This document shows, one piece after another, positions 1-54,293 of a DNA stretch of 64,000 nt; the stretch's first letter is position 1; every line of letters begins with the position of its first letter. The translations under genes were made by a program, and so were the position numbers. Source of the DNA: Ashinkailepas kermadecensis (lineage: Eukaryota; Arthropoda; Thecostraca; Neolepadidae); NCBI GenBank assembly GCA_034440615.1, contig JAOTOM010003126.1:62001-126000 (forward strand), written 5' to 3'. Under the pieces are notes generated by a model. That model made no database searches. It saw only the letters and a program-made list of their open reading frames with translations, and had not been told where the DNA came from.

Positions 1-354
1 GCTGGTAAAGGCACTGAATGCATTGGAGTATGTCGAAGTACCGCCGTCTCATCCATACACAGTGGCGCAGACTTCACAGCTCTTGCCTCCACCATCTCGA
101 TCAATGCCAGACCACCAGCATAGCTCCTGCAGGCGCTGCTTGCATCTGACGATGCTCTGGTACCACTGATGTGCCAGGCTGAGCAGTCTAAGCGAAGCAG
201 ACTTTCTGGAACGATTAGGCAATCGCCGCGCACAGCCATACCTCTGCACAGTGAGTTAATCCCTGAGGTGGAAGAATGGCTGAAGGTCAGGCGAGCAGTC
301 GCCCGACCTACGAGACCACGGACGCGATACCTGATCACGCAACACGATCTTCAC
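1..354 (-). pseudogene. Ty3/gypsy integrase N-terminal fragment
   Basis: Read on the minus strand, 249-49 gives an H2C2 zinc-binding region of a Ty3/gypsy integrase: a histidine in LAHQW, then IVRCKQRLQELCWW and a CEVC pair. That spacing and the WW-GID step are characteristic of metaviral integrases. The upstream part (344-250) reads as the usual linker before integrase (LQPFFHLRD), interrupted by a TAA. The fragment runs off the window at base 1, so the catalytic core is not seen. Its upstream end stops exactly at the satellite-ended insertion (355 onward). The RNase H end at 27995 fits directly against it, so it is probably the downstream half of one element split by that insertion. It is decayed (stop, small indel) and not expected to be functional. 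Confidence 0.8.
345..354. repeat. Left copy of 9-10 bp target-site duplication
   Basis: CGATCTTCAC at 345-354 recurs exactly at 27985-27994. Each copy lies between Ty3 sequence and the outermost unit of a 16-bp satellite array, and the two arrays are inverted. If the first C is given to the element, the duplication is 9 bp and both element ends become 16-nt units of equal length. Duplications of 9-10 bp are typical of MULE and Foldback insertions (established knowledge). Confidence 0.75.
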
Positions 355-3322
355 GATTCTAGGACAAATGTACGTAAGGACAAATGTACGTATGGCAGAT
401 GTACATACGCAAATGTACGTAAATATCTGCGTTTACGTACATTTGTACGTAAACGCAGATGTACGTATGGCAATTGTACGTAAGCGCAGGTGTACGTATG
501 GCTAATGTACGTAAGCGCAAATGTACGTATGGCAAAAGTACGTATGCGCAAATGTACGTATGCGCAAAAGTACGTATGCGCAAATGTACGTAAGTGCAAA
601 TGTACGTATGTGCACATTTACGTATGCGCAAAAGTACGTATGCGCAAATGTACGCAATCGCAAATGTACGTATGGGCAAAAGTACGTATGCGTAAATGTA
701 CGTAAGCGCAAATGTACGTATGCGCAAAAGTACGTATGCGCAAATATACGTATCCGCAAAAGTACGTAAGCGCAAAAGTACCTAAGCGCAAATGTACGCA
801 AGCGCAAATGCACGTATGCGCAAAAGTACGTAAGCGCAAATGTACGTAAGCTCAAAAGTACGTATGCGCAAATGTACGTAACCGCAAAAATATGTAAGGG
901 CAAATGTACGCAAATACAGCTTTACATAATCGAAGTGTATGAAAGCGCACGTGTACGTATGTGTGCATGTACGTATGTGTAAATGTACTTGAGCGCGAAT
1001 GTACGCAAGTGCAAATATACGTATTCGCAAAAGTATGTATCGGAAAATGCCCGTATGCACAATTATACATAACCGCAAATTTACGTGATAGCAAATATAT
1101 GAAAATACAGCGTTAGGTAACAAGTGTCTGAAAGCGCACGTGTACGTAAGCGCAAATGTACGTAAGCGCGAATGAACATATGCGCAAAAGTACGCATGCG
1201 CAAATGTACGTAAGCGCAAATGTACGTATGCGCAAAAGCACGCGTGTGCAAATGTACGTAAGCGCAAATGTACGTATGCGCAAAAGTACGTATGCTTAAA
1301 TGTACGTAAGCGCAAATGTACGTATGCGCAAAAGTACGTATGCGCAAATGTACTTAAGCGGAAATGTACGTCAACGCAAATGTACGTATGCGCAAAAGTA
1401 CGTATGCGCAAATGTACGTAAGCGCAAATGTACGTATGCGCAAAAGTACGTATGCGCAAATATACGCATGCGCAAATATACGCATGCGCAAAAGTACGTA
1501 AGCGCAAATGTACGTAAGCGCAAGTGTACGTAAGCGCAAACGTACCTAAGTGCAAATATACGTATTCGCAAAAGTATGTATAAGCAAATGCCCGTATGCG
1601 CAATTGTACGTAACCGCAAATTTACGTGATAGCCAATATATGAAAATACAGCGTTAGGTAACACAAGTGTCTGAAAACGCACGTGTACGTAAGCACAAAT
1701 GTACGTATGCGCGAATGTACGTATGCGCAAAAGTGCGTATGCGCAAATGTACGTAAGCGCAAAGGTACGTATGCGCAAATGTACATGCGTAAAAGTACGT
1801 ATGCGCAAATGTACGTAAGCGCAAATGTACGTATGCGCATATGCGTAAGCACGTGTTCGCAAATGTACGTAAGCGCAAATGTACGTATGCGCAAAAGTAC
1901 GTATGCGCAAATGTACGTAAGCGCGAGTGTACGTAAGCGCAAATGTACGCAAGCGCAAATGCACGTATGCGCAAAAGTACGTCAACGCAAATATACGTAA
2001 GCTCAAAAGTACGCATGCGCAAATGTACGTAACCGCAAAAGTACGTAAGGGCAAATGTACGCAAATACAGCTTTACGTAATATAAGTGTATGTACGTATG
2101 TGGAAATGTACTTGAGCGTGCATGTACGTAAGTGCAAATGTACGTATTCGCAAAAGTAGGCATAGGCAAATTCCCGTATGCGCAATTGTACGTAACCGCA
2201 AATTTACGTGATAGCAAATATATGGAAATACAGAGTTAGGTAACCCAAATGTTTGAAAGCGCACGTGTACGTAAGCGCAAATGTACGTAAGCGCGAATGT
2301 ACGTATGCGCCAAAGTACGTATGCGCAAATGTACGTAAGCGCAAATGTACGTTTGCGCAAATGTACGTATGCGCAAAATTACTTATGCGAAATCTACGTA
2401 AGCGCAAATGTACGTATGCGCAAACGTACGTGTGCGCAAATGTACGTAAGGGCAAATGTACGTATGCGCAAAAGTACGTATGCGCAAATGTACGTAAGCG
2501 CAAAAGTACGTAAGGGCAAAGGTATGTAAATACATCTTTTCGTAATCGAAGTGTATGAAAGCTCACGTGCACGTATGTGTACATGTACGTATATGTAAAT
2601 GTACTTGAGCGCAAATGTACGTAAGTGCAAATGTACATATTGGCAAAAGTATGTATAGGCAAATGCCCGTATGCACAATTGTGCGCAACCGCAAATTGAC
2701 GTCATAGCAAATATATGTAAATACAGCTTTACGTATTCGAAGTGTATGAAAGCGCTAGTGTACGTATGCGTACATGAACGTATGTGCAAATGTATTTGAA
2801 CGCAAATATACGTAAGCGCAAACGTAAGTATTCGCAAAAGTATGCATAGGCAAATGCCCGGATGTGCAATCGTACGTAACCGCAAATTTACGTAATAGTA
2901 TATGGAAATGCAGCTTTAAGTAACCGAAATGTCTGAAAGCGCACGTGTACGTATGAGTAAATGTACTTACGTAAGCGCAAATATACTTATGCGCAAATGT
3001 ACCGAAGCGCAAATGTACATACAATGTAAGACTATATAAGCACAAATGCACGTATGCGCAAAGGTATATATGCACAAATGTATGCATGCACGCAACAACA
3101 AAATTACATGAGAAAAATGTATGCATATCCAGTTATACGTAACCCAAATGTATGAAAACGCAAGTGTAAGGAAGCACAAATGTACGTATGCTCAAATGTA
3201 GATACGCGCAAATGAACTTATACGCAAATGCACGTTAGTACAAATATACATACTTGCAAAGGTGCGCAAGCACAAATGTAAGTACCCACAAATGTGCCTA
3301 TGTGTAAAGGTACGCATGCGCA
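355..3322. repeat. 16-bp satellite array, left inverted arm
   Basis: Tandem repeats of a 16-bp unit, consensus near TACGTAAGCGCAAATG with TACGTATGCGCAAAAG variants. Near-perfect stretches lie around 540-860, 1140-1540 and 1680-2060; the array degrades toward 3322. Because 16 is not a multiple of 3, it creates long spurious frames with a 16-residue period on both strands. A second block, containing ACAGCTTTACGTAA followed by GTGTATGAAAGCGCACGTG, recurs at about 915, 1107, 1645, 2067, 2228, 2531, 2722, 2909 and 3127. This gives irregular higher-order units of roughly 160-540 bp. The same block is found inverted in the arrays at 18.3-19.3 and 26.5-28.0 kb. Confidence 0.95.
425..460. repeat. Perfect 16-bp inverted repeat in satellite end
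   Basis: ATCTGCGTTTACGTAC at 425-440 is followed by a 4-base loop (ATTT) and its exact reverse complement at 445-460. It lies about 70 bp inside the outer end of the left array, where the unit direction briefly flips. The matching position of the right array has no such hairpin. Confidence 0.9.
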
Positions 3323-4174
3323 CCCGTCGCCTACACCGCTCACGTGCCCTCATCACGCCTGCCGACCTTTGTCACCTCCATAACCCTTCGCTTTCGCTGA
3401 TCGCACGGATACGCCACGGAGTACGGACGCTGACGACAAAACCGAGAACTCGCGGACGAACGAGTCTCCGAAGACGCCAGCCACCATCGCCGCAGCCCAC
3501 CTGCCGACCAGCCGCCAGCCGCCTACCGCCAGCCATCAATCACCTGCCACCTGCCACCACACACACGAAGCCTCAATCACCAATACACGCACACGCACCA
3601 AGCATCAAACCATACCTCCCCACGCCACCGATATCTCCTCCTCCTTCACTCAAACACCATCTCAACCCACCTCTCCTGAAACTGAGCCTATCTACAGGCA
3701 AGCCTCTTCAAGCCTTCAAGCCTTCAAGCCTTCGACTCTCCAAGTCTTCAAGTCCTCAACTACCTCTTCAAGACCTTCATCTGTGCAACTGTGCTAGTGC
3801 TGTGCCTCATCTTCTACGCCGCCTACATCTACGGATCTTCCTCGTCTACAAGGTCAGTCCGGCGGTGCTGCCAAACCCTCCCGCCTCGGGCTCCCTCCAC
3901 ACCACCCCCCTATTTTCCCTCTAGTGCCCTCTGCACGATCTTTATCTGATCTTTTTTCTGACCGTGCTCTCTTCACGCACATTCTCCGATTTCTTTGTGT
4001 TCCCTTCGACTTTTCTACCCCTCTTTTACAATCTGTCGGGCTTCCTTCACGCCCTTCTATACCCTCCGCCAGCTATTGTACTGTTTTGAGTTGCACACAC
4101 ACCTGCCACAACCCACCTTTTCCCAACACCACATACATCATAGACGCATACAACAGCCCACGGACCCGCAGACT

Positions 4175-5263
4175 ATGGACAACGACACCACACCCACAGG
4201 CGAGTTCTTCATCTGTCGCCGGGGAGACGGGGAGCCCATGGGCTCCCTCGACCCCTGGCGGGTAGATGAAGAATTCGCAACCTACACGGGAGCGCCCCTA
4301 CACGCCAAATTACTCAGATCAGGGGCGCTCCTCATACAAGCAAATTCCAACATCGACGCACGCCTCCTACCTACCATACACGCCATACTTAATATCCCGG
4401 TCTACATCACCCCCGCTACACACCTAAACACCTCGCAGGGAACCATTATGGCCCGAGAGCTGGCCGGTATATCGGCGGACGTCCTGGTCGAGAGGCTCCT
4501 CGACCAGGGTGTCACCGCCGTGTACCGGCCGGCCCCAAGAAACACCCGCACCACAGGACTTCACATACTCACGTTCAATACACGCACACCACCTAAATAC
4601 ATCAAAGCGGGATACCTTAGTTACCAAGTCACCCCACGTGCACCCCTTCCGCGACGCTGTGCCAAGTGTCAGCGATATGGCCACTCAAAGGGGGGGGGTG
4701 CCACAGCAACACACATACATCCGGGAACTGCGCGCAGCCACACCCTACAGACCAGTGCAGGAGCGGCGAGCTTAGCTGCGCCGCCTGCGGGGGGGACAAC
4801 GCGGCATCGGACGGGCGCTGCCCCCGGTGGCCCGCGGGCGGCGTGGCCAACTCGCCGCACAGAGCCGGGTAACCACAACACACCAGCACCACCACTCTCT
4901 TACATAGAATACCCGGCTCTGCCCATACCAACACAACGCAAGCAGAACACAAACCCAAACTCACAACAAACTGACACACCAACACCGACCAACACCAACA
5001 CACACAAGAAACACCCCGCAACATCAGGACACCCCACCACCCACCGACCACTACAAGCACCACCACCCATCCCAAACCGCCCACTGGCACCTACCCCACC
5101 CTGCCACCCACCACCGCCACCACCCTACCAACCGGAAGCCCACTCAACTTCACAACCGGAAGCCCACCCCACACACTTCACATACATCGGCCACATCACC
5201 GGCACAACACTCAAACACAGACACCGGATCAGAGCAAACGGACACCGAACACATCACGACTGA
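4175..5263 (+). pseudogene. LINE ORF1 (gag-like, zinc-knuckle protein)
   Basis: The start is the ATG at 4175, beginning MDNDTTPTGEFF; the open frame extends upstream only through leader sequence. The first 170 residues match the pre-knuckle region of I/Jockey-group ORF1 proteins, which bind LINE RNA and act as nucleic-acid chaperones. A first CCHC knuckle begins CAKCQRYGH at about 4657. A run of nine G at about 4689-4697 then shifts the frame. The next knuckles, including CAACGG...DGRCP, are read in a different frame up to about 4870. The original frame resumes after that as a proline/threonine/asparagine-rich tail. At least two frameshifts make this a pseudogene. Confidence 0.8.
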
Positions 5264-5398
5264 CTCAGACGTCACAATCCCCTTCACCCCAACACCACCC
5301 CCCTCTAAACCACAAGAAACACCACAACGGCCAACGAAAAGCACAATAAAAAAACCATCACCCAAAAAACCATTCACCCGCGCTAACACCCACAGACA

Positions 5399-8300
5399 AT
5401 GAATACAATCATACTATGGAACACGCACGGACTCATTCGACACTGGCCAGAATTCAAACACTACGCACTACAAACAAATCACACAGCACTATGCATACAG
5501 GAAACACACTTCAAACCTCACGACCCATATCAATTTAACATTCCTCACTACACACTACACAGACAAGACACACACAACACACACAGATCAGGCGGAGTAT
5601 GCACATACATTAGGAACACAACGCCGCACCGCCTGATACAATTAAACACTACAGCAGACATATTACTTACTGAAATCCACGTACACAACACAGCTTACAC
5701 ACTCATTAACGTATACGACCCCCCTCGCGAAACACAGAAACCCTCTCGGAATTAAATAAGGCACTTGAACAAATTCACACCCTTGTCATACTCACAGGAG
5801 ACTTTAACTCACACCACCCACTATGGGACAACACGAGCACAACACGACCCGATCACAGAGCACTCACACTCATTACACTGGCTACACAACATAACCTCAC
5901 AACATGTGGTTTGTGTTTGCATCACACTGGCTACACAACAACGCAACAAGCTACACAACCTCACAACCACTCAACACCGGCTCACCAACATACCTCGTAC
6001 CAGTTAGCTCACACCTCCCTACCACCCCGGACGTAACGCTCGCTTCCTCTCGCATAGCCCTCACCCTATCCTGGACAGCCGACTCCGATCCACATTTTAG
6101 TGACCACGCCCCCATCACCATTACCTTCCACCAAATCCCGACCATTGGCCCACCCAACCTCCCGACGGGCCGGTGGAACCTTAAAAACGCATCCTGGACC
6201 CCATTCTCAGAATCCTTAGCAGCACAGACATCCTATAATCCACAATACACACCAGGACAATACGCGGACATGCTACTCACCACCGCACTCGAACACATAC
6301 CACAAACACAACCACGACACCAATACAAACCTCGCGCGGCTCCCTGGTGGAACGACGAGTGCCACCGGGCGATCCGCGCGAGGAACCACGCACGACACAG
6401 ATACGAACGACACCATACACCGGAAACACTCACAGCACATAAACAAAACAGAGCACTATGCAAACGCACCATCCGACATGACAAAAAGACCTCCTGGAAT
6501 AAATTGTGCACACAATTTAATAGATTCACACCTCTCCGAAAAATTTGGACACTCCTCAAAACATTTCAACACGGACAAAGAACCCAGCTAAAGCCATCAC
6601 ACTTATACACAACAACATCACCATCACAAACCCACAAACAATAGCAAACGTTTTCGCAGACAATTATTACATTAGGTCATGCACACTCCCACGACACCCC
6701 CCACCCCCAATCAGACACACACGTCCACATCTTTACAACACTAGGTTTACACTCACAGAATTACAAATAGCAATCGCACAAACAGGAAACACAAGCGTAG
6801 GACCAGACAACATACACTACTCATTCTTCAAACATCTACCACTACAAGCATTACACGCATTACTCGACACCTACAACACGCATGGAAAACACATACATAT
6901 CCACAATCTTGGTTACACGCTTTTCTCATTCCCATCCATAAACCAAACACTGACTCAACTCTATGCGACTCTTACCGTCCTATCGCACTAACCAGCTGCT
7001 TTCACAAACTCTTCGAACGCCTAGTCAAAAAACGCCTTCTTTATATTATTAAAACACAAAACTAATATCTCCTATACAATCAGGCTTTCTTCCTAACCGC
7101 TCATGTCTAGACAACCTCACCTATCTCACCACCCACATACAGGAAGCGGCGGCCAAGAAACTTTCCACCGTCGCCGTCTTCCTGGATCTCAAACAAGCCT
7201 ATGACACTATCAAAATCACAGCACTCCTAGAACACTTACACAACATAGACATACAGGGCAGACTCATACACTACCTCCATTTCTATCTATTAAACCGCTC
7301 CTTCCAAGTCAAAATTGGACAACACACCTCAGAAACTAAATTCCCTACAACCGGCCTAATGGAAGGCTCGGTTCTCATTCCCCTCCTCTTTATTTTAGGC
7401 TTAAATTCAGTCCTCACCGACAACTTTTCGGCCAAAATTGCAATCTATGCAGACGACATTGTACTTTGGACATCGCAAGCAACACCAAATCACGCACTAA
7501 CTCTACTACAAAACTCACTAACAGAATTACACAACAAACTCGCAGTACTAAATCTACACATCGCACCACACAAATCAAAATGCACGATTTTCGGCTACCA
7601 CCAACACACAGACGCACAACCACTAAAAATAGACCAAACATCTATACCCATCGTTACCGAAGAAAAATGTTAGGCATCACTTTAGATCGACGTCTTACTT
7701 TTCGGCCACACATTCTGGACATTGAAAAACGCGCATCCAAAAGAATTAACATACTACGAGCACTTTCTGGCACAACCTGGGGATCCGATCGAAACACACT
7801 TCTAACCCTCTACAAATCACTCATTCGGCCAATTTTGGAATACGGAGTCCCACTCTTCGAAAACGCTGCTAAATCAAACCTCAAAATTATAGACAGCCTA
7901 CAACACCAATGCTCAAAAATAGCCACAGGAGCCTATATCACCTCACCATACCTCGCACTACATATATACAACCACATACCAGAATTACAGCACAGACGCA
8001 CACAAGCACTATTAAGATATCACTACAAAATGCAACTCATAACACAACACCCATGTACACAGGCCCTAAAGCTTCGCACCACACGTGTACACCAACTCAT
8101 GACAACATCACGACTCAAAACCACAATAGGCTGCCGCATCCACCAACACACAAACAGACTACACATTACACTACCCACTGCCAAACCATTACCAACACCC
8201 ACAGCCTGGTGGAAACACGAAACACCCACAACACATTTCCTCATAGACCACCCAAAACACACATACACCGACGCAGAAATACACCAACTCTTCCAATTCA

Positions 8301-9171
8301 CAGCACAACACGCAAATTACAACATCATATACACAGACGGTTCGAAATCACATACACAGCAGACGGGCACAGCGGCGGTGCTGTACCCCAATGCAGCACC
8401 GCCGCGGGTTATCCTTCGTGCCCGTCTGCACGACACAGCATCAACCTACACAGCAGAATTATACGCAATCTTTTCGGCTTACTCCACCATTTATAACACC
8501 AAAATTGAACACAACATCATAGCCACTGACGCCAAATCAGCATTACAAAGCATCACACCATATACCAAACACCAACACCCCTCATCCCGAAAATACTCAA
8601 CATACACCAAAAACTCAACCCACGACAAAGACCACTTCTCCTATGGATCCCAAGTCACACAAATATACACGGCAACGAACACGCAGACACTGAAGCAAAC
8701 ATAGCCACAACACTACCACAAACCATACCATGTCCACTCTCACAATCTGACTACTACCCCACAATACAACAGGCACTTAACAAACACATCCAACAAACAT
8801 GGGACACAGCACTAACGCAACTTCATGAAATACACCCCAAACACGAACCTTGGCACACCATCAACCAACGCACCAGACTTAGGGAACGCACACTAACACG
8901 ACTACGCCTCGGACACACAGCACTTACACACTCCTACCTCTTACTACAACGCCCACGACCACAATGCACAACATGCCAACGAACGCTCACCATCAAACAC
9001 ATACTCATCTACTGCACCAAATACAACCACCAAAGACAACATATCACCAACTACTGCGCCACACACAACATCCCACTAAACCTCACTACTCTTCTCAACA
9101 TCCAGCACTACACGAACATGTCTTCCACTTTCTCTCTATCACACGCATACTCGAACAACTGTGGAAAAAAA
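5399..9171 (+). pseudogene. LINE ORF2 (endonuclease, RT, RNase H)
   Basis: The start ATG at 5399 opens the endonuclease, with IQETHF (catalytic Glu) near 5490. Later segments, in shifting frames, give TGDFNSHHPLWD near 5795 and SDHAPITITF near 6100 (catalytic Asp and His). The RT region shows NTSVGPDNIHY near 6795, VFLDLKQAYDT near 7180 (motif A) and YADDIVLW near 7450 (motif C). RNase H follows: YTDGS near 8330, TAELYAI near 8455 and ATDAKSAL near 8525 give the D, E, D residues. The C-terminus near 8965 carries CTTCQRTLTIKHILIYC. Open stretches are 5399-5755, 5904-6644, 6545-6991, 7359-7673 and about 7640-8704, so several frameshifts and stops separate the domains. It would have nicked target DNA and copied the element RNA. 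Confidence 0.85.
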
Positions 9172-9330
9172 TGAAATACAAATAAAAAGATGTTACAAAA
9201 GATGAAGAAAAAAAATGAACAAAATACCCAAAAACGAACAGAAAAACATGATATTGATGAAAAACAAAAAAAAACAAACAAAAACAAACAAACAAACAAA
9301 AAAACAAAAAAACAACATACCCAAAGACTG

Positions 9331-10045
9331 AATGTGGTTCTTACAATGTTAATCAACTATGGCGACGACCCAACCCCAAACCCCCACTACACCCCATACC
9401 CCAACATGGCACCGTCCGGACTGGCAACTCTTCGCAACCACATCATCTTCGGACTTCGACCAGCTCTACTGTACTTCTGCTCAACTCAGCTCTACTCAGC
9501 CTACTCCAAGCTTCAAGACGCCTACAAATCTACTCCGGCACCGCTCAACAAATCAACCCCCTCTTCCACTCCTCGACTAATCCTCCTACCATACTCTTCA
9601 CCCCTTCTTACCTCTCAATGCTAATACACCCACCAAACACACGGAAACAGCCGATATCACCACACGGTGGCCAGGCTGGCAAAATTCAAACACATACACA
9701 CACACACTTGTCACCTCAAGACGGCCTTGAGTCATCTCAACATGCCCGACTTTAACCGGGCCGTCGCCTGGTTCGCCGTCACCATCGGCTTGTTCGGACC
9801 CTCCGTGCACCTGAATATCTCAACCCTACAGAACACCAGTTGGATCCAGGGCGATCCTGTCAGAACCAGCACCTCACGGTCCAGAAATGTTACTTGGCCC
9901 TCGCCATCCTCTTGCCTCTGGCCAGGCGGAGTGGGACCCCACGAAAAATATAAGGTGGTTCGAATCCCAGTGACCTCAGCAGTGGCGTATCAATGATTTA
10001 GTCTAGTGGGAGGGACGAACACCTGAAGAGCCCTACCTACTGAGG
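9331..10045 (+). other. Possible LINE ORF1 remnant and unassigned sequence
   Basis: Directly after the A-rich LINE tail, an ATG at 9359 opens a 73-residue Thr/Pro-rich frame (MATTQPQTPTTPHTP). The compositional bias resembles the preceding LINE and a second element start may be present, but no domain can be recognised. A B-box-like GGTTCGAATCC lies at 9958-9968 without a convincing tRNA fold. CAGTGGCGTATC at 9981 looks like a hAT-type end; no partner end was found. Confidence 0.3.
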
Positions 10046-10133
10046 GACCATATGTTTATAACACATACACACACACCCACACACACACACACACACACAT
10101 ACACATACACAACACATACAGATACACATGCAC

Positions 10134-10169
<36 letters not shown>
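10046..10169. repeat. Imperfect (CA)n microsatellite
   Basis: ACACAT/ACACAC tracts with TACA and CCCA interruptions, ending in an uninterrupted CA run of about 20 bases before 10169. It is followed by about 260 bases of unassigned sequence up to the next microsatellite. Confidence 0.95.
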
Positions 10170-10425
10170 TGTTAACTGAAGTATATTAGTTGGTGAAGTC
10201 CGACAGTTTGCCAAAAAGAACAGTGAGAGCACACGCAGGTGCAGCTTGCGGAGAGCTCAGGTCGCGGCCGACTGACCCTCTCCCTCCTCGCGCCGCGGGT
10301 TACATATCCGCCATGAGTCAGAAGCACGAGCATGCCTACGTCACATCCGACGTCACCTCTGACCTTGACCTCTACGTGTTACACAATCCACAAGTGAATC
10401 ACGCCATGACCAGTCGACGCGTCAT

Positions 10426-10427
<2 letters not shown>

Positions 10428-10514
<87 letters not shown>
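10428..10514. repeat. (CA)n then (TA)n compound microsatellite
   Basis: About eleven CA dinucleotides pass directly into about 32 TA dinucleotides. The TA run is the left boundary of a dispersed repeat (10515 onward) that is also TA-bounded in its copies at 40061 and 54.87 kb. Confidence 0.95.
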
Positions 10515-10518
<4 letters not shown>

Positions 10519-11450
10519 CATATATACTTATTCGACAAAGATGGTTAAATGGGTGGTAAAATAAGGCGCAACGCGCTAGTGTGGCTAATCCAAGAGTTCG
10601 GAAAATACAGGAAGGAAAACGAACCATTTAGCTGCCGACAACAACCAAGAAAGGAAAACCAATTGCGGAATTCAAAGGGACATAAACACGTATCTAATGA
10701 AGGTAGGAATTTTATTAGATTGAGTCAAAATATCAGCACTCATCTGCATGAACAGAATTGCTCCTTTCTGTTATCGGCTAAGTTCAGACATAGTTTAATA
10801 GGGAGGGTGTTTATGATAAGAGTAGGCTCACATTGCTGTGCCTTCTCAACACCGTCACACGTTCTCAAAATGAGGCGCATGAATACCAGTGGGGAAAAAT
10901 AAGTGCAAAAGTTTGGGACAGAGAGGAGCTAGCAACATGCCTGACCAGCTATGTGCAACACACAGCACCCCAAATTTTTTTTTGCTTAACCGATGACACC
11001 CACCAGGGCGAAACAACTGGCATCGCTGGAGCGACCGTCATCACAGCTATCGCTGGACTGTCTGTTTCGCCATCGCTGGGGCGACTGCAACTGCTGAAGC
11101 TGTGGTCAGGCTACTGGAACAGCTGTGGCCGCTTGGGCGGTCGTCACCGCCAGGACGATTGTGGCTACAGGGGCGGCAGCCGCCGCTGAGGTGGCTGTGG
11201 GTGACCTTTCTTGTCCTTGGCAGCATTTATGACTATGAAGGATATCCTATCTCTGAAGTTGGCCCTCAGTATTCCTCGCACCCATCGCCGCTTCTCAAGG
11301 ACTCTCTTAGCTCTCAGGGGCCCCGATCCGTCAGGTGCTCATCCTAAGGTTCAGGCACACTCCAGTGCAGTCCTATCTGGCTCTCTGAGGACTTATTCAT
11401 CCGACAGGAGCCCTCTCCAACTTGCATGGGCCATTTCCAGTCCTCGATAA
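10515..11450 (+). repeat. TA-anchored dispersed repeat, copy 1
   Basis: It begins right after the TA run with GACAAAGATGGTTAAATGGG and GGTAAAATAAGGC. The inverted copy is found in two pieces at 54294-54870 and 45650-46071, separated by the BEL/Pao insertion. A third partial copy lies at 40062-40250. The middle (about 10990-11200) is an alanine-codon-like GCTGGAGCGACCGTC region, GC-rich, with no continuous reading frame. The element type is unknown; no terminal repeats or coding domains were recognised. Confidence 0.7.
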
Positions 11451-13375: not shown

Positions 13376-13394
13376 TAGCCCAGCCAATGCCCCT

Positions 13395-14560
<1,166 letters not shown>

Positions 14561-17500: not shown

Positions 17501-18287
17501 ACTGTTCGTTTCGTTACTTTAGAATGTTGCTTCGTGGCGCCTCCATTACCGATAAAAAGTGCTGAGTATAAAAGTGTGCAACAAACCCAGTATGGCACGG
17601 TTTCTGAAATGAAATGTTATGGTAGAAATGGAAGAAACAAATAGTTTCAGGCAATTACTTTTACTTCGCTAAAACGGATGAATTCTCTGCATATCTTGCG
17701 GAAATTTTGGGGAAATGGTTCTAGGGATAGCTACCGTTGTTGCCCACCTTCTCCCTTTACCACTGCCAGAACCGCCACCAAGAGTAGTGAACCAGGCCTC
17801 GATGTAGAACCTGAGACCTCGACACTTTTGGGGAAATGCCAAAATAACCGACCCACCATCCGAGTACCCATAGGATGCATAGCGACTTAAACCCTGTCTT
17901 TCTAGTGCTATCGGATAAAGTGGGTGTGGGCAGTGCCTGATCCAGAGGGTCATGGGGTCATGGCCCCTTCCCCTTGGGCCTCAAAGGCACCCAAGCGGGC
18001 TGTTGAGAACGTGTTTCAACATAGGTCATCACGTAACATTGGAACTCTGGGGGTACTCCGAGCAACCGGTCAGGGCCCCGGGCCGACGTCAGGGTCAGGG
18101 CCGTCTAACGATGAAAGAGGTGCGGAGCTGATGCGGAGGATCCCGAGCCGGTGAAGAAGGTTCAGGAGTCGACGGAGAGTGCCCACGGACAGACGTTGAA
18201 GGCCCCGGCTGGGCCAACGTGAAGGCTTCTATGCTGGCGGAGGGAGCCCCGGGTTGTTTGAAGGACCCCGACCAGCGCATTAGTCAC
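14561..18287. other. Interior of the satellite-ended element, unassigned
   Basis: No gene was recognised; open frames are all below 100 residues. It contains a run of 18 G at 15076-15093, a (TG)n tract at about 16326-16352, and a CAGGGGCGAATCC hAT-like end at 15782. The last 350 bases (17930-18287) include GGGCCCC-rich sequence similar to the degenerate 21-bp family. If the 355-27984 block is one transposon, a transposase would be expected here; none is visible by eye. Confidence 0.5.
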
Positions 18288-19292
18288 ACGTACCTTTGCA
18301 CTTGCGTCTGCGCTTACATAAGCCTGTCGTACATTTGCGCTACGTACATTTGCTTACGTATGTCTACCATACGTACATTATGTATTTTTGTCATATGCAC
18401 ATTTGCTTACGTACATTTGCTTACGTACATTTGCTTACGTACATTTGCTTACGTACATTTGCTTACGTACGTCTGTCATGCGCACATTTTCTTTCGTGCA
18501 TGTGTCCCAGAATCGCGCTTGCCTATATCTGCGGTCACGTACTTTTTCGCATTCAATCTTTTTCCCACGTACATATCCACTTACTCATATTTCTGATTGC
18601 GTCCTGTTGTAATTACGCAAATGCCTGTGTGCTTACGCGCACAGGACGTGCTTACGCGCCCATTCCAGATGCTTACGTGATGTGTCCTTACGTGCTTACG
18701 CGCACATTCCAGATGCTTACGCGTCATCTGTGTTTTTCTGCTTGCGTACCCTTCAATTGACGTACATTTTCGTTTGCATACATTTCCGCTTACGTACGTA
18801 CGTACGTCCATTCCCGCTTAAGTACATTTCTCATCCGTACCCTTGCACTTATGAACATTTGGGCTACACAAATTTGCAATGGCGTACGTTTGCTCTTACG
18901 GACTTTACCTTGACGGACATTTCCGCTTCTGTACCTTAGTAATGACATATATTTGTCATACGGGCATTTCCATTTACGTGCATTTACATTTACACTTGGG
19001 TTACGTAAAGCTGTATTTACACACATTTGCTCTTACGTACTTTTGCGCTAAATTACTTGTGCATACGTGCATTTGCGCTCACGTACATTTCCGTATACGT
19101 ACCTTTGCGCCTACAAACACCTGTACTTATGCACATACGTACTTTTGCAATTACATAAATATGCGCATACCTAAACGTGCGCTTTCATACACTTGGGTTA
19201 CGTAAAGCTGTACTTATATGCATTTGCTCTTACGTACTTTTGCGGTTACGTACATTTGCGCATACGTACATTTGCACATACGTACATGTGCG
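18288..19292. repeat. 16-bp satellite array, right arm, inner part
   Basis: Units read TACGTACATTTGCGCT on the plus strand, opposite to the array at 355-3322. A clean run of CTTACGTACATTTG units lies at 18405-18470. The higher-order block (CACTTGGGTTACGTAAAGC) is at about 18995 and 19185. The array ends abruptly at 19292 where a CAGGGGCG end begins, and continues in phase at 26543, so it was probably continuous with the 26543-27984 array before the insertion. Confidence 0.9.
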
Positions 19293-20535
19293 CAGGGGCG
19301 TCGATTTGTATCCTTTTTCGGGGGCCATGCCCCCCCCCAATGCTGATCTTGGCCCCCCCAATGTTGATTTGGCCCCCCCCAATAACCCATGCTATTTGTA
19401 TGCTGATAAAAAGCTAAAGGAAAAAAAAGAAGAAAAACACTGTTAGGTACATAGAAAACTTAGTTGATGTTAACCAGCACATTTTGTACTGAAAAAGAAC
19501 AGATTTGGATTAGATAGTGGACTGAGTATCCAACTTTTGCTACACAATTCAAAATTATGTGCAAAAAAACAAAATAGCTAGATTTCCCTCCACTGTGCAA
19601 GGAAAACTTACGACATAAAATGTTAAGATTCGCTGATGATGCATTTTAAACCAGATTGTCTTTTATTAATGTTAAGCCACAAAACAACAATTGGATTGTC
19701 ATACTGATGTTTGTACACACCACCAATGACAAAACCACACACATATGAGCTTAAACAGGAAAAAATCCATTCTTAATTTCCAGTCATTGTCAAACTTGCA
19801 TTGTCCAGTTAACAGCAATGACAATCATCCTTGAGATTGTGGATATGCAAACTATAATTATCTTCAGCAGCCCACCTATCACACCATCAGCTTGATATTT
19901 ACCTAGGTACCTACCTAAATGCCCAATGACAATGCATGCATTCAATATTGATATGGGGAAAACGAGAGCCATGTGTGGGCAAATCTGCCAGCTTATGATA
20001 CCATGACAGAGAAAAGTCAGCAAGAAGCTGCATGGCCACTGCAATATAATTGGTATTCCTAAAAGAATAAAAAAGAAAGCTATGGCTCACATGACTTTTA
20101 AGCAAACCTTAGTCATCCACGACCAATGCTATACAAGAGAAATAGCCTTGACAAGCCCAATGTCTCGTACGCCCCAAAAACACCATTATTAAACGCCGCA
20201 AAATACCATTATTTTAAAAGGTACACCAAAGTCGCATTCAAACCTTAATGACGTCACATATTTTTATTCGTATATTGCAGAAATTGGTAGCATCAGGCAA
20301 GTTTCAATTTAACTGCATGGGGGAGTGAATTTTTCAGGCGTACCGGACCACAGAGGTCATTTACGCCACCTTTGAAGCGAGTACGTTACATGTCTGACTA
20401 TAAAAGCGGGTGTTTGCGATCAAGGTGCAGGCATGTGGACGTTTACGTAAAGGGAATTTTACGTTATAGTTTGTGTGATATTTTAGGCGCTGAAGGCGGA
20501 GCTAGGATGGGGACATCCCCCTAATGTCTAGATGG
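19293..20535 (+). repeat. CAGGGGCG-family repeat, copy A1
   Basis: It starts CAGGGGCGTCGATTTGTATC with a GGGGGCCATGGCCCCC palindrome-like stretch. It runs through AT-rich sequence and ends near ATGTCTAGATGG just before the next CAGTGGCG end. A near-identical copy (by eye) is at 55143-56398. Fragments are at 42150-42355, at 45292-45640 and, inverted, at about 39000-39797. The right part contains ACTATAAAAGCGGG, a TATA-like motif of unknown significance. No coding frame. Confidence 0.75.
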
Positions 20536-21023
20536 CAGTGGCGTTGATTTGTATCCTTTTGTGGGGGCTAGGGCCCCACCAGTGTTGATCTTTGCCCCCC
20601 AATGTTGATTTGGCCCCCAATAACATATGCTGTTTTTATGCTCATAAAAAAGTTGAAGAAAAAAAGAAGAAAAACACAATGCTAGGTACATAGAAAATGT
20701 AGTTGATGTTAACCAGCACATTTTGTAATAAAAAAAACAGATTTGGGTTAGATAGTGGACTTGCTATATGGAGGCAAATGTGTGTAAAAAATTGTCTTGT
20801 TACCACCTTAAAGCACAATAATACCGATTTAGCTAGGTTAGGCTAGTTTAGTTGTTTACCTTGGAAAAATTGTTCCATCATTTTCAAAAATAAAATAAAA
20901 TTTGAAATTTTCCTTCAAAAGCAGCTGACACTAGGTTCGGGTAAGTTGGGTTCGGTTGTTCAACTTAGAAAATTTTCAGAATATATATTGCTTAATTTTT
21001 GTTTCTATTTTTTTTCTCCAAAG
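20536..21023 (+). repeat. CAGTGGCG-family repeat, copy A2 (partial)
   Basis: It starts CAGTGGCGTTGATTTGTATC immediately after copy A1. It loses about 1 kb relative to the copy at 56399-58015. It carries a TTAGG-like island (GGTTAGGCTAG) near 20855 and ends where another CAGGGGCG end starts at 21024. The same A1-A2 junction is present at 56398/56399. Confidence 0.65.
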
Positions 21024-21899
21024 CAGGGGCGTCGATTTGTATCGATAGACACTAGCGCGCATTAAATGTCACACATCGTGATGGGCGTTCCTCAGAACAT
21101 CCAAAATCGTAACATGCAAAGAAAAAATTCCAGTTCCAGAAATTCCAGCGCCTGAAGTCTAAATTTGAGGTTACAGTGACAAATGTGACGGAGGTAAGAC
21201 ATCTGTGGTGCAATTGCGCGCAGTGTTTAATCCGGAGGCCAATCTCATGTGACGTCGTACTGATTCGTTTTTTGTACTTCGCACATTCTGATGTATCGCA
21301 CCTTCTGATGTATCTGCGGATTGGTGTGATTTTAGATAGTGAATATATAGCTTGCTGATATTTAATTCCCAAAGGAAGAGTAATTGAAGAAGTTGGCAGG
21401 TAAGCTTGAAAAAGTCCAGTCCATGCTTTTTTCTGATTTGTGCTCAGGATTTCCATGTTAATATCACATAACTACCACGTTTGTCTTCAAGAAGAGCTGT
21501 TTTTAGTTTACTTTTATTAATATTTTCATTCCACTGCTCTTAGTGCCCTTTCTGCCCAGGATTGGGGCACCTAGTGTTGCATTTCCGTCGAGGGGTTGGC
21601 ACACCTTTTGGTAAATTTACAGCTTAAGGTAATTTCTGATTAATTTTTTCCCATGCAATGTTTAGGAATGTGATGAACACGATGTTACTGCTCATTTTGG
21701 TAGATTTGTGTTTTAAGATGTTTTATGAATTCGTGGAATGTATCATTTCAATGCAATGTTTATGAATGTGACTCAGATGATGGGACCACTCATTTTCTAT
21801 ACAAATGCCTACATTTCAGGTTGTAAGCAAAATAACATCAACAATAAGCTTTGAATTAGGTGACATAGGGTAAAGTATTTTTTTTAAATAAAATAAATG

Positions 21900-23375
21900 C
21901 AACATAACCTAACCTAACCTAGCTTAACCTCCCCTTGGAGAAAAACAAAACCAAAACATCAAGTCGTAAAAATTTCAAGCAATGTATTTTTTTACAATAA
22001 AAAAATGTAACCCAACTTAACCTAACCTAACATAAGCTGCTTTTAAAGCAAAAAGATCTATTTCTTTCAAATTTTGGAACAATTTTTGCAAAAAATGTCG
22101 AACTTAAAACACTTAAACTAATCTAACATCACCAAACATAGCCCATTTGTTTGCTTTATGGAGGCAAATGTGTAATAACTTGCCTTGTTACCACCTTAAA
22201 GCACAATAATTCTGGTTAGATTAGGTTGGGTTAGGTTTTTTCATTTGTAAAATTTCAAGAAAATAAATTGCTACATATTTTTCCCAATCTTGTTTTTATA
22301 GTTGTTTTCTCCAAGGTCAGCTTAGGTTACATTAGGTTATGTTGAATTTTTTATGTATTTCTTTTAATTGCTACGTTACCTAACTCAAAGCCCATTTTTA
22401 ATGTTATTTTGCTCACAACCTGGAAAGTAAGCATTTGCACAGAAACTGAGTAGTGCCATCAGCTTAGTGACATTCATAAACATTGCATTGGAAATTTAAA
22501 TATAAAAATATTAATAAAACACATAAAAGCACACATTTAATGTCCTTTCCTCTGCAAATGCATGCCTTTCAATTGGGAGTAAAGAATAACACCAAAAAGG
22601 GGTGTGGAGTAAGGAAATATAGCATACAAATAATGTTCAAGATGTATGATAACCTTACCTACATAGTTCAACTTCCCATACAAGAAATTAATTGTTTTTA
22701 ATTTAAATTTTCGAGGCATTTTCTCAAATATTTTCAACTTAAAAAACCTAACCTAAGCTAGCCTGAACCGTTTATTATTTTTTTTGTAGAAAAATAATAA
22801 ACAAAAATTGTTTACCAACAAATGAATTTTTTTTATAACTTACAACAAAAGCCTAACCTAACCTGACAAACCTCACCCCTTTGTATGCTTCATGGAGGTA
22901 AAATGTGTGTACAACTTGTCTTGTGGTTGCCTTAAACTATGATAATACCTGGCTTTTTGGGTAATATTTCAGCTCATGGTACTCTCTGACTTCTTCTAAT
23001 TTATTTTTTAATGCAGTGTTTGTTAATGTGCTGAACATGATGTAACCGATCATTTCCTCTGCAGATGCACACTTTTCATTTGTGAGGAAAAATAACGTGG
23101 AAAAGGGGGCTTGTATTTGAGTAATATAGGATGAAAAATAATGTTCAGATAAAAAAAAATGTAACATAACCTAACCTAACCTAGCCTAGACTTCCATGCA
23201 AGTAATAATTAATTTTTAGCCAAATTCCCCCCCCCATTTCTTTTTTCTCAAACATTTTAAACTTAAAAATTCTAACGTAACCCAATCTAGCCTGAACCGT
23301 TTTTGAAGATTTTTTTTTTCATTTACTAACTTACAACAAAAGCCTAGCCTAACGCAATTAGACAAAACCTAGCTC
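21900..23375. repeat. CCTAA/TTAGG-like islands in left arm
   Basis: Short runs such as CTAACCTAACCTAGCTTAAC (from 21909) and GGTTGGGTTAGG near 22225 recur every 100-400 bases on either strand, embedded in AT-rich sequence. Each run is only two to five units, and the units are often CCTAACCTAACC with interruptions. This resembles internal repeats of the AT-rich element rather than true telomere. The mirrored set lies at 34770-36210. Confidence 0.7.
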
Positions 23376-24049
23376 CTTTGAATGATTCGTGGAGGTAAAA
23401 ATGGGTGTAAAACATGTATTGTGGTTACCTTAGACTGCAATAATATCTCTTTTTGTGCTACCTGGTGTACGTGATGAACCTCCATCTGCATGCTGCATGA
23501 GAGCATTGCACTTATTGCTTTACAAAGAACAATAGCATGTTGAAAGTACAATATTTTCAGGAATGGAATCCTGTGCTGATAACATTTTCTGAGTTATAAA
23601 TTTGCAGATCAGATCTACATCATTTGTGTTAATAAATATGAGCAATTCATAGAAATGCATACACCGGTATGTGGACAAGAAGTTATTCTGATGATTTCTG
23701 ATGTATTGGAAAATGAAAAATTTTCATGATGGAAGCCGGCAAAGTTAAAGTACATATATCTCAATAAGTGGTCAGTTCACTAACAAGACAGCAAATTCAC
23801 TCAAATAGCACTCAAAATGCCAGGCGGCCCACTCTTTTTGCAAGTTTAAAATCGATGACAGTGCTTTCTTGAATCATGTTTAAAGCACATGAAGGAAATG
23901 TATTGCTGACACTTGTTAGGAACTGATGTGTGTAACGTTAATTAACATTTCTAATGTCCTGATGCTTGTACACAAAATATAGCTCACTATTGTAAATAGC
24001 ATGGGAAGTATGATGCCATATATCATGGCTAATTTATGCTCAAACTGTT

Positions 24050-24110
24050 ATGCAGCAGATTCCCTGCATTGTTACTTAGTTATTTGGGCTTTAGGGCACA
24101 GACCATGTTG
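24050..24110 (-). repeat. SINE 3' remnant shared by both IR arms
   Basis: On the minus strand it reads CCCTAAAGCCCAAATAACTA and is flanked by AACAATGCAGGGA-type duplications. The equivalent copy in the right arm is at about 34015-34062, so this insertion predates the arm duplication. Confidence 0.6.
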
Positions 24111-24899
24111 ATCACAAAGCTCCCTGCATTGTTCTTAACTGATACATCAGTATGTTTGCAAATTCACTTATGAGTGAATCCATACCATTCTCACTGGGGT
24201 ATAAAAGCTACATTATAACATTGCTTATACCGGGCGGCTGTGTCGGTGCATTGACGGCACGTTAAACTTTCGGTCAAAATTCTGCCGTTTAACTTGAATT
24301 CATGGATCGGGTGGTGGGGCCAGGGTTCACGCAACACGCTCTGCTTAGCAATCGGACCCTGGTTCATAAAGCCACCCCAACAAGAACTCGGATGAAACTT
24401 ATGAGAAAAAAAAATGAAAAAAAATGCATATAACAGAAACCCATCTCGATTGTCCTGCTTACTCATGACACCATAGAAGTCAATGAAGCCAATGAAAACC
24501 ATAGAAGTCACTGAAAATGTTACTTCATCCCCTGTATTGTTAATAGAAACAAGTATCTTGAACCATATGTTATGTCCTTCACAGTGTTGCTCCATCCACC
24601 TCCAACTCCAACCCTGACCAAACTTCAGGAGCTCATCCATCTCCAAAGCAGTGTGTTGAAGAAGGTATGTATTGCAGCATAACTACTGTGACCGGAATTC
24701 CATGGTATCCATGTTGCCTTACAATCCATCCTTGCTGATCCATGTAGCAGATGTTTGACTTTCCTGAAACTGTCTGGATAACTGGGGAGTTGAAATCACA
24801 TGTGTGGTGAAACAGATGAACTATTCCTGGATTCTTATGTTGCATCATTGCATGGCACAGTGACATACGGAGTGGGGAGGGGGAATTGTGGGAAGTTTC

Positions 24900-25870
24900 C
24901 TCACCCCCCCCCCCGTCCTGATTGGTTGTGGGGCCCCCAAGAGTCCGCCGAGCTTAGGAAGAAAATGCGCTATGCTCCCTAAGAATTTCACTCGGTCCAC
25001 CAAAAATCGCACCGGGGATCAGAAAAATTACATTGGGGGCCCCCAAACGTAGCGCAGGGGCCCCGATAATAACGCTGGGGCCTCAAAAGTTTGCACCTGG
25101 GCCCCTGAAAATCACGTTGGGGCCGCAAACAAGTCGTGCCGGGATTCAAGAAAATTACGACGGGGGCCACAAACGGTCGGGCCGGGGCCTCCTGAAAATC
25201 ACGCCGAGACTGGGGTATTAAGAATTATCACCCGGGCCCCTGAAAATCACGCCAGAGGCCTGATAGGTCCCACCGGGGCTCTAAAAGTCTCGTTGAGATC
25301 ACCCAAAAAATGAAGCCGGGTGAATGAAAAACAGTCCGGACACGGAAAATAAATCTGGGATCTCAACAATAGCTCCAAAGGCCCACACAACTTGTTGGGC
25401 CCCCACAAACGTGTCGTAGCCACCGCAAGGGATCCCAACAAGTGACGACGGGGCCCCAAAAATCGCACTTAGACAAAAACAAATTCACGCCGCTTCTCTT
25501 GAAAATCTCACTGGGGCCAAAACGTCGTGCCGGAGCCCACAAGTTGCAGCTGGCTTCCCAAGTACCAATATATACCCGGAATGTCACCTTGCGGACGGAA
25601 AAATTGCGTCAAGGATCCACAAAATGAGAAGTCGTCGGACGCCGGAAATAAACCTGTTTGAGCACCGGAAAAAACGCACCGAGAGCCAGAAAAATCGTAC
25701 CCGGTTCCAAAAATAGCCTGTAGGGGGCTTATAAAAATAGACTTCACCACAAAAACCACAAGGAGACGCCATCGAATCGACCAGAGCACCGGAAAATTAA
25801 GAATGGGTCCCGAAAGAAAGTTATCCGGAGGGCCCTTCTACTCTCGATCGTGCAATCTGCGGAAAAAACA
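24900..25870. repeat. 21-bp GGGGCCCC degenerate tandem repeat
   Basis: Units such as GGGGCCCCAAAAATCGCAC recur at about 21 bp with heavy divergence. Translation shows a 7-residue period (GAPKRSA, GAPIITL, GPQKFAP, GPLKITL). It is mirrored in the right arm at 32475-33430. Non-coding by this evidence. Confidence 0.75.
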
Positions 25871-26151
25871 CGTTGAGCAGCCGCAGTGGCGTACTAAATG
25901 GAAAAATTCCCTTCCCTAACGTTAGGCACCAAGGAAATACTTTCACCCATCGTCATTACCGTTCAGGTCTGCTGTGCTCTGATGCTTCATCAATGCCGGT
26001 GTGTTTTAGCCTGCATCTGATCGCTGAAGTATTTTTATTTAAGCCGGTGTGTGTTTGTTGGTGTGTGGAGTAGGAGGAGGGTAACAGTGACGGTGACGTT
26101 GACGATAGATCCGAGCCCACTATATGGCACTGCAGTCGCATGCTATTACTC

Positions 26152-26303
26152 AGAGTTGTTATGTTGGTGTGTTCGAGTCTCACCTGTCGCTACTCTTCGC
26201 CCGCGACCAATCGGCGTGAGAGATTGGCGACGCTATATGACACAACGGTCGACGTGTCGTAGAACCAATAACCAACCAAGACCAACCAAGAGTTGTTATG
26301 TTG
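26152..26303 (+). mobile_element. 5'-truncated tRNA-derived SINE with 15-bp TSD
   Basis: The body at 26167-26288 contains the B-box GTTCGAGTCTC and a tail of ACCAACCAA type. It is flanked by a perfect AGAGTTGTTATGTTG duplication (26152-26166 and 26289-26303). The other IR arm keeps the empty site near 32190-32206. The same family is present with its tRNA-like head at 29159-29324. A TSD of this length indicates LINE-mediated insertion. Confidence 0.9.
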
Positions 26304-26542
26304 AAATGTACTGAGCACTGCTCTTTTAATTATGTGACTTCACCAGTTATTGGACGATTTTCCCCGTCGGTGAGGATGCTGAATAAACATAAACATACAC
26401 ATCGTCGAATAAGAAATCAGAATTTCTGAGATCTGAAAATATAGTGGGCTAAATCCGATGAGTTTTTTTTGGGGCAGGGGGTTGGGGTCTAGTGCGTTGG
26501 CACTTAGGCCCCCCCAATGTTTTTCAAAAATCGACACCCCTG

Positions 26543-27984
26543 CATATGCGCATACGTAAACGTGCACTTTCATACACTTGGGTTACGTAAAGCTGTACGG
26601 ACATACATTTGCTTTTACGTACTTTTGCGGTTACGTACATTTGCGCATACGTACATTTGTGCATACGTTCTCTTGCGCTAAAGTACACTTGTGCATACGT
26701 ACATTTGCGCTTACGTACATTTGCGCATACGTACATTTGCGGTTACGTACTTTTGCGCTTACGTACATTTGCACTTACGTACATTTGCGCATACGTACTT
26801 TTGCGCATACGTACATTTGCGCTTACCTACATTTGCGCATACGCACTTTGCGCATACGTACATTTGCGCTTACGTACATTTGCGCTTACGTACATTTGCG
26901 CATACGTACATTTGCGCTTACGTACTTTTGCGCTTACGTACATTTGCGTTTACGTACATTTGCGCATACGTACTTTTGCGCATTCGTACATTTGCGCATA
27001 CCTACATTTGCGCATAAGTACTTTTGCGCTTACGTATATTCGCGCTTACGTACATTTGCGCGTACGTATACGTGCGCTTTCAGACATTTGGGTTACCTAA
27101 AGCTGTATTTCCATATATTTGTTATCACGTACATTTGCGGTTAAGTACAATTACGCATACGGGCATTTGCCTATACATACTTTGGCGAGTACGTACATTG
27201 CACTTAGGTACATTTTCGCTTAAGTATATTTACACATACGTACATGTACATATACGTACACGTGCGCTTTCGTACTCTTCAATTACATAAAGTTGTATTT
27301 GCGTACATTTGCCCTTACGTACTTTTGCGGTTACGTACTTTTGCGCATACGTACATTCGCGCTTACGTACATTTGCGCATACGTACATTTGCGCATACGT
27401 ACATTTGCGCTTACGTACATTTGCGGTTACGTACATTTGCGCTTGCGTACATTTACGCTTAGGTACGTTTGCGCTTACGTACACTTGCGCTTACGTACAT
27501 TTGCGCTTACGTATTTTTGCACATACGTACACTTGCGCATACGTACTTTTGCGCTTACGTACATTTGCGCTTACGTACATTTACGCATACGTACTTTTGG
27601 GAATACGTACATTTGCGCTTACGTACATTTGCGCATACGCACTTTTGCGCATACGTACATTTGCGCTTACGTACATTTGCGCATACGTACTTTCGCGCTT
27701 ACGTACATTTGCGCATACGTACTTTTGCGCATACGTACATTTGCGCTTACGTACATTTACACATACGTACTTTTGCGCATACGTACAATTTGCGCTTACG
27801 TACATTTGCGCATACGTACATTTGCCATACGTACATTTGCGCTTACGTACATTAGCCATACGTACATCTGCGCTTACGTACAATTGCCATACGTACATCT
27901 GCGCTTACGTACATTTGCTTACGTACATTTGCGTACGTACATCTGCCATACGTACATTTGCTTTACGTACATTCGTCCGGTTAC
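26543..27984. repeat. 16-bp satellite array, right arm, outer part
   Basis: Units read TACGTACATTTGCGCT/A on the plus strand and are very regular between 26690 and 27060 and between 27340 and 27800. Higher-order blocks (TTGGGTTACGTAAAGCTG) lie near 26576, 27090 and 27280. The last dozen units before 27984 mirror, variant by variant, the first dozen after 355. Long frames on both strands are repeat artefacts. Confidence 0.95.
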
Positions 27985-27994
27985 CGATCTTCAC
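27985..27994. repeat. Right copy of 9-10 bp target-site duplication
   Basis: CGATCTTCAC, identical to 345-354. It separates the outer satellite unit from the RNase H end of the Ty3 fragment. Confidence 0.75.
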
Positions 27995-54288: not shown

Positions 54289-54293
54289 GCTGT

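What the first reader, a model, noticed from the sequence alone, without database searches (positions are those of the whole stretch)
345..27994. A 27.6-kb Foldback-like transposon whose TIRs are a 16-bp satellite, inserted in a Ty3 element
Seen: CGATCTTCAC flanks the block exactly, the Ty3 RNase H end (27995) and integrase linker (344) fit directly across it, and both ends are inverted satellite arrays with the same variant order. Known: Foldback elements (MULE-related) have TIRs of tandem short repeats and 9-10 bp duplications. Inference: the satellite in this genome spreads, at least in part, as the arms of a very large transposon. I know of no described element of this size with this unit.
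Basis: partly seen in the sequence, partly recalled or inferred. Interest (0 to 1): 0.92.

Follow-up and report, generated by a model that had tools for sequence, protein, structure and literature searches.

The report
Barnacle-type jumping gene with satellite arms
The block is a real cut-and-paste type jumping gene whose two ends are long arrays of a 16-letter satellite repeat, one of many such copies in what looks like a barnacle genome; it is a large, satellite-rich relative of elements described in nematodes and flies rather than a new kind of thing.

Summary
355-27985 is one DNA-transposon copy inserted in the RNase H-integrase linker of a decayed Ty3 element. The duplication is 9 bp (GATCTTCAC); the tenth shared base belongs to the right terminus. 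The termini are asymmetric 7-mers, GATTCTA (end A) and GGTAACC (end B), each followed by GGA and inverted arrays of ~16-bp units. In the same genome end A has 720 and end B 983 sites (controls 0). Of 37 A/B pairs, 19 carry a perfect abutting 8-9 bp duplication, against 0 of 1332 mismatched pairs. The 27.6 kb includes a 6.3-kb non-LTR and a 7.3-kb hAT-like insertion; net length 14.0 kb. On contig C1370 a FLYWCH-MULE transposase gene lies between an end-A arm and the shared core; on C3918 a broken copy is followed by core and an arm ending in end B. No complete or intact autonomous copy was found. The plan matches Tm1 Mutator/Foldback elements of root-knot nematodes, with far longer arms; Tetris of Drosophila virilis is the satellite precedent. 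In a listing sample 83 of 100 satellite matches lie just inside a full terminus.

The parts
346..354 (.). left copy of the 9-bp target-site duplication GATCTTCAC
27986..27994 (.). right copy of the 9-bp target-site duplication
355..361 (+). end A, GATTCTA, followed by GGA and the outermost satellite unit
   Evidence: GATTCTAGGACAAATGTACG has 720 sites in the genome with at most 1 mismatch, control 0
362..3332 (+). left satellite arm, commonest spacing 16 bp
3333..3378 (+). start of the internal core, up to and including the left copy of TTGTCACCTC
   Evidence: matches L021 at its arm-core junction, by eye
3379..9707 (+). nested non-LTR retrotransposon (reverse transcriptase, RNase H) flanked by TTGTCACCTC at 3369-3378 and 9708-9717; L021 is the empty site
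9708..13170 (+). internal core, left part; pieces shared with L021, C1325 and C651 at 89-96 % identity
13171..16325 (+). middle of the internal region, with a (CTCTTG)n tract at 13776-14558; no long match in the other copies compared
16326..18278 (+). internal core, right part; shared with C651 and C1370 at 94-95 %; its arm-side part also with C1222 (94 %) and C3918 (93 %)
18279..19292 (-). right satellite arm, inner piece; holds a degenerate inner end A at 18514 (3 mismatches)
19293..26542 (.). nested element with CAGGGGYGTCGATTT-type termini, flanks CATGTGCG / CATATGCG (7 of 8); called hAT-like from its termini and 8-bp flanks (recalled), no transposase found
26551..27978 (-). right satellite arm, outer piece
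27979..27985 (-). end B, GGTAACC read on the minus strand
   Evidence: GGTAACCGGACAAATGTACG has 983 sites in the genome with at most 1 mismatch, control 0
1..354 (-). integrase zinc-binding part of the interrupted, decayed Ty3 element
   Evidence: (Pfam match below its cut-off, E 0.037)
27986..28960 (-). reverse transcriptase end and RNase H part of the same Ty3 element

Best explanation
The block is a non-autonomous copy of a Mutator/Foldback DNA transposon of the Phantom/Tm1 type. A FLYWCH-MULE transposase made by copies of the C1370/C3918 type recognises the ends (7-bp A or B motif, GGA, then 16-bp units), cuts the element out and inserts it with a staggered cut of 8-9 bp, which gives the duplication. 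The satellite is the terminal inverted repeat itself: arms gained tandem units and each new insertion seeds a new array. Shown: termini, duplications, Ty3 empty site, shared core, many termini, arms made of the satellite, transposase gene beside the core with an arm and end A (C1370) or an arm and end B (C3918). Inferred: that this transposase moves these copies, that its finger binds the units, that movement is cut-and-paste, and how arms lengthen.
For: Duplication test 19 of 37 perfect against 0 of 1332; 13 of the 19 are 9 bp and 6 are 8 bp. End motifs counted in the whole genome, 720 and 983 sites, controls 0. Ty3 empty site. Core or core edges shared by insertions with different perfect duplications: window GATCTTCAC and C651 GTCCATAC share the core, C1222 ACCACTCG its two edges. 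MULE domain E 3.2e-6 and FLYWCH E 2.7e-5 on C1370, between an end-A arm and the shared core. On C3918 I fetched the stretch where the C1370 plan put the arm; it holds core, arm and an exact end B. D88, D155 and E281 invariant in the query and the 9 relatives aligned, of 74 found. Satellite sample: of 100 listed matches (of 1478), 86 lie within 6 kb inside an exact end or terminal unit, 83 counting full A/B ends only.
Against: No copy found has both ends, a duplication and an intact transposase. C1370 has end A, but its right arm stops about 20 bases into the satellite, no end B or matching duplication was found in 36.6 kb, its FLYWCH and MULE parts are about 3.2 kb apart although adjacent in other copies, and a run of N lies upstream of the FLYWCH part. 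C3918's gene is broken, its predicted left end was not found, and 3.5 kb fetched upstream showed no end. For transposase copies on C3664 and C3604 (about 80-89 % nucleotide identity) the 3-3.5 kb fetched showed neither satellite nor core. 8 of 37 A/B pairs fall below 0.77 identity (C1222b, C1507, C1778, C2065, C2340, C1325, L020, L021), though L020 has a 9-bp match one base off. No Pfam transposase lies in the scanned parts of the window copy. The Ty3 joint is out of frame by one base.
Confidence: 0.86

Rival explanations
1. Satellite DNA was captured during repair of a staggered double-strand break in Ty3; fill-in made the short duplication and no transposon is involved.
For: Such repair can leave short duplications (recalled, not tested).
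Against: The same 7-bp termini at hundreds of sites, 8-9 bp duplications abutting them in 19 of 37 pairs against 0 of 1332, and a shared core in insertions with different duplications.
Confidence: 0.02
2. The termini are moved by another transposase, for example of the P, hAT or Merlin superfamily, and the MULE gene on C1370 and C3918 is a passenger. Galileo shows that foldback structure can arise in other superfamilies (PMC4079207, passages).
For: 8-bp duplications (6 of 19) also fit hAT and P elements (recalled); no intact MULE copy with both ends; only C1370 and C3918 tie the gene to arms. Only MULE (PF10551) was searched for genome-wide, so other transposases were not compared.
Against: 13 of 19 perfect duplications are 9 bp; the gene lies in line with the core; Tm1 combines the same end plan with the same transposase class.
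Confidence: 0.07
3. The window block is a composite: two short satellite foldbacks flank a stretch trapped between them, rather than one element with its own core.
For: Short copies of 0.6-1.4 kb made almost only of arms exist; pairs without duplications suggest recombination between copies; a degenerate inner end A lies at 18514.
Against: The core bounded by arms recurs in the window, L021 and C651, with its edges in C1222 and pieces in C1370 and C3918; three of these have different perfect duplications.
Confidence: 0.05

Closest known systems
Tm1 Mutator/Foldback family, Meloidogyne (PMC3169594; start of abstract and passages seen)
   [quoted passage not shown] then 3-bp GGA; then tandem ~14-bp units as inverted repeats; 8-10 bp duplications in 45 of 53 elements; Phantom-like MULE transposase with an imperfect FLYWCH domain in one element; most copies non-autonomous
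   Different: Tm1 arms hold 1-9 units, here about ten to over a hundred; other 7-mers and another unit; here many more termini (720 and 983 sites)
Tetris, Drosophila virilis (PMC4079207; passages and section 10 seen)
   Same: Foldback transposon whose tandem terminal repeats became a satellite; 8-10 bp duplications
   Different: 220-bp unit, long flanking domain outside the repeats, three structurally complete copies, transposase not found
Phantom clade of MULEs (PMC6446971; passages seen)
   Same: FLYWCH in some members, duplications of 8-10 bp, Crustacea among hosts, minisatellite after the transposase gene in aphids
   Different: Listed terminal repeats 18-613 bp; clade membership by tree not tested here
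FB (Drosophila) and Galileo foldbacks (recalled, and as cited in PMC4079207)
   Same: Long tandem-repeat arms
   Different: Galileo is an exception to the Mutator grouping; no sequence comparison made here

Membership tests
Tm1-type Mutator/Foldback | asymmetric 7-bp end motifs, one of each per element | tested here: met
   GATTCTA and GGTAACC; 19 of 37 A/B pairs have a perfect duplication, 0 of 6 same-type pairs tried has one; three of those six are 22-34 kb apart, so this control is weak
Tm1-type Mutator/Foldback | GGA next to the end motif, then tandem units of about 14 bp | tested here: met
   GGA follows both motifs; commonest unit spacing 16 bp in all 15 elements measured, with some 14 and 15
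Tm1-type Mutator/Foldback | 8-10 bp target-site duplication | tested here: met
Tm1-type Mutator/Foldback | Phantom-like transposase with FLYWCH and MULE domains inside the element | tested here: inconclusive
   both domains on C1370, tied to one arm and end A there and to an arm and end B in C3918; no copy complete
Tm1-type Mutator/Foldback | purine-rich motif D at the inner end of the arm | not tested
   not looked for
Phantom clade | transposase falls in the Phantom clade by phylogeny | not tested
   no tree built; nearest relatives found are MULE proteins, many with FLYWCH
MULE superfamily | DDE residues conserved | tested here: met
   D88, D155, E281 invariant in the query and 9 of 74 relatives aligned; calling them the catalytic triad is recalled from motif positions
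hAT, P or Merlin elements | own transposase of that superfamily in the element | tested here: inconclusive
   no such Pfam domain in six frames of 3501-13402 and 14581-26547; the arms and 13403-14580 were not scanned, and the window copy has no MULE domain either, so this does not separate them

The most novel reading that the evidence does not exclude
A genome-wide satellite that is, in the main, the terminal repeat of one Mutator-type transposon: every 16-bp unit is a transposase binding site, arms grow from the outermost unit (C1022 shows 13 identical terminal units in a row, one variant and two more, at a variant end A), and jumping elements plant new satellite loci across the genome.
Probability: 0.4. 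Interest if true: 0.68.

Novelty: new member of a known kind. Interest (0 to 1): 0.5.

Why it matters
It joins two earlier cases that were each incomplete: Tetris, where foldback arms became a satellite but no transposase was found, and Tm1, where a transposase is known but arms stay short. Here kilobase satellite arms, dispersed copies with duplications, and a candidate FLYWCH-MULE transposase occur in one genome, so whether a transposase drives the spread of a satellite can be tested directly.

Tried and rejected
A transposase inside the window copy: six-frame Pfam scans of 3501-13402 and 14581-26547 gave only RT and RNase H of the nested non-LTR, a sub-threshold RVT_3 and a sub-threshold SEA_Gpr126 match. 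The arms and the low-complexity stretch 13403-14580 were not scanned. C651's interior was looked at only as a list of frames of 150 or more residues.

MULE loci L029-L038 (10 of the 39 matches) hold no satellite in the ~3.3 kb returned; GATTCTAGG in L033 and L034 lies inside a region the two share, not at an end. The C4380 locus (9 kb) has no satellite either.

The left end predicted for C3918 was not found: 3 places with 2 mismatches on other contigs, and 6 for the reversed control. Core copy number and a host identification by cytochrome oxidase did not complete. Host: relatives named by sources include Amphibalanus amphitrite, for Ty3 2 of 5 and for MULE the best two. That the host is a barnacle is inference; species unknown.

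Literature: searches (11 of 11 listed; 2 of 2; 15 of 388; 12 of 14; 12 of 615; 8 of 8) listed no paper on this family; that is all I can say about whether it is in print.

Full report
What is there. In the 64-kb window the ten bases CGATCTTCAC occur twice, at 345 and 27985. Between them lies a block with inverted arrays of a 16-bp repeat at both ends. Other copies from the same genome show the true boundaries: end A GATTCTA and end B GGTAACC, both followed by GGACAAATGTACGTAA. The element is therefore 355-27985 and the duplication is the 9-mer GATCTTCAC.

Empty site. The flanks belong to the minus strand of a decayed Ty3 element (RNase H above its Pfam cut-off, integrase zinc domain below it). 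Compared separately with three relatives, the right flank ends at residue 600 of P0001 and the left resumes at 608; for P0002 858 and 863. Allowing for the duplicated 9 bases, both are by my arithmetic about 4 residues from direct continuation. In P0004 (Amphibalanus) the linker is longer (366, 392). The frame shifts by one base at the joint and both flanks hold stops and other shifts; the copy is decayed, so position rather than frame is the evidence.

Is it a family? The window lies on contig C2629 of a 907.7-Mb assembly. GGACRAATGTACGTAA has 571 forward and 564 reverse sites against 0 and 1 for the reversed control. With at most one mismatch, end A (20-mer) has 378 + 342 sites and end B 464 + 519, controls 0. 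These are sites, not counted elements.

Duplication test. I took 37 A/B pairs in opposite orientation: 16 fetched earlier (window included), chosen for paired terminal units in the listing, and 21 picked by eye, under 30 kb apart, from the first listings. Where a copy had inner ends as well, the outermost A and B were used. Perfect abutting 8-9 bp duplications: 19 of 37 (18 of 36 without the window), 13 of them 9 bp and 6 of them 8 bp; at least 0.87 identity: 26; at least 0.77: 29. Mismatched left and right flanks gave 0, 2 and 4 of 1332. Six same-type pairs gave 0, but three of them are 22-34 kb apart and need not be one element. Dropped before the count: L009 and L015, where no second terminus was recognised. 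Below 0.77: C1222b, C1507, C1778, C2065, C2340, C1325, L021, and L020, whose 9-bp match is one base off.

Anatomy. Masking the satellite and comparing interiors (C1370, C1222 and C237) shows a shared core: pieces of window 9708-13170 match L021, C1325 and C651 at 89-96 %; window 16326-18267 matches C651 and C1370 at 94-95 %; C1222 shares the two edges of the core only. Two later insertions inflate the window copy. A non-LTR element (RT E 3.2e-24) sits between two copies of TTGTCACCTC, and L021 is its empty site; the same non-LTR family inserted independently into satellite in C1325 with AAAGTACGTAT. An element with CAGGGGYGTCGATTT termini sits in the right arm with 7 of 8 matching flanks; in C237 the same kind sits in satellite with exact CATTTACG. 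I call it hAT-like from recalled features; no transposase was found in it. Net length is 14,034 bp, like C651, 14,378 bp with duplication GTCCATAC. Arms reach 5.1 kb in C651. Small copies of 0.6-1.4 kb are little but arms.

Transposase. None was found in the scanned parts of the window copy. Of 39 MULE matches in the genome (a lower bound), the one on C1370 lies between an end-A arm and the shared core. Its 366-aa frame carries MULE (E 3.2e-6) and an upstream frame FLYWCH (E 2.7e-5). The copy on C3918 is 92 % identical over residues 109-366 but broken. I then fetched the stretch of C3918 where the C1370 plan put the arm, and found core, arm and an exact end B there. Against: C1370's right arm stops after about 20 bases, no end B was found in 36.6 kb, a run of N lies upstream of its FLYWCH part, and its FLYWCH and MULE parts are 3.2 kb apart although adjacent in C3918, C3664 and C3604; the left end predicted for C3918 was absent; and the stretches fetched beside the C3664 and C3604 copies showed neither satellite nor core. 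So the link between gene and ends rests on two incomplete copies. Relatives: 74 proteins at E at most 1e-5, the best two from Amphibalanus amphitrite at 45 and 51 %. D88, D155 and E281 are invariant in the query and the 9 relatives aligned.

Satellite and transposon. A two-unit satellite pattern has 730 + 748 sites. Of the 100 listed, 86 (34 of 44 clusters) lie within 6 kb on the inner side of an exact end; this end set, typed, includes 12 bare terminal units. With full A/B ends only, 83 of 100 (31 of 44 clusters); requiring the same strand as well, 66 of 100 (26 of 44). The upper bound for a random position is 1.1 %. Of ten clusters without an end, four were fetched: three have an end with 1-3 mismatches, one has none in 2 kb. 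This samples one satellite variant on low-numbered contigs, not the whole genome.

Comparison. Tm1 of Meloidogyne has the same plan: 7-bp asymmetric ends, GGA, 1-9 tandem ~14-bp units, 8-10 bp duplications in 45 of 53, FLYWCH-MULE transposase in one element, its FLYWCH lacking a histidine (PMC3169594, passages). Tetris shows foldback arms turned satellite (PMC4079207, passages and section 10). The Phantom clade includes crustacean hosts (PMC6446971, passages). [quoted passage not shown]

Verdict.

Noticed in passing
window 45690-46083 and 54283-54873: An LTR element between them (about 46.07-54.29 kb; BEL/Pao by recalled look of its proteins, no domain search) is flanked by pieces that match the foldback core, so it appears to have inserted into an old relic of the same element.
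   Followed up: partly
window 31953-39797: A second, inverted copy of much of the hAT-like composite element lies outside the block.
   Followed up: partly
window 19285-19292 and L028+L043 (C237): In both loci the hAT-like element sits at the same phase of the satellite unit (CATGTGCG, CATTTACG), which hints at a target preference.
   Followed up: no
L123 (C1022:70600-71300): At a variant end A (GATTATA) the outermost unit GGACAAATGTACGTAA is repeated 13 times exactly, then one variant and two more, as if arms grow by copying the terminal unit.
   Followed up: partly
window 18514; L067 1680: A degenerate inner end A lies inside the right arm at matching positions in the window and C3918, so arms may contain old nested ends.
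   Followed up: no
window 29158-29319: A tRNA-Val-like match with a repeated tail, perhaps a SINE; a partial copy lies at 26140-26279 inside the nested hAT-like element.
   Followed up: no
window 13776-14558: A long (CTCTTG)n tract in the middle of the internal region, not seen in the other copies compared.
   Followed up: no
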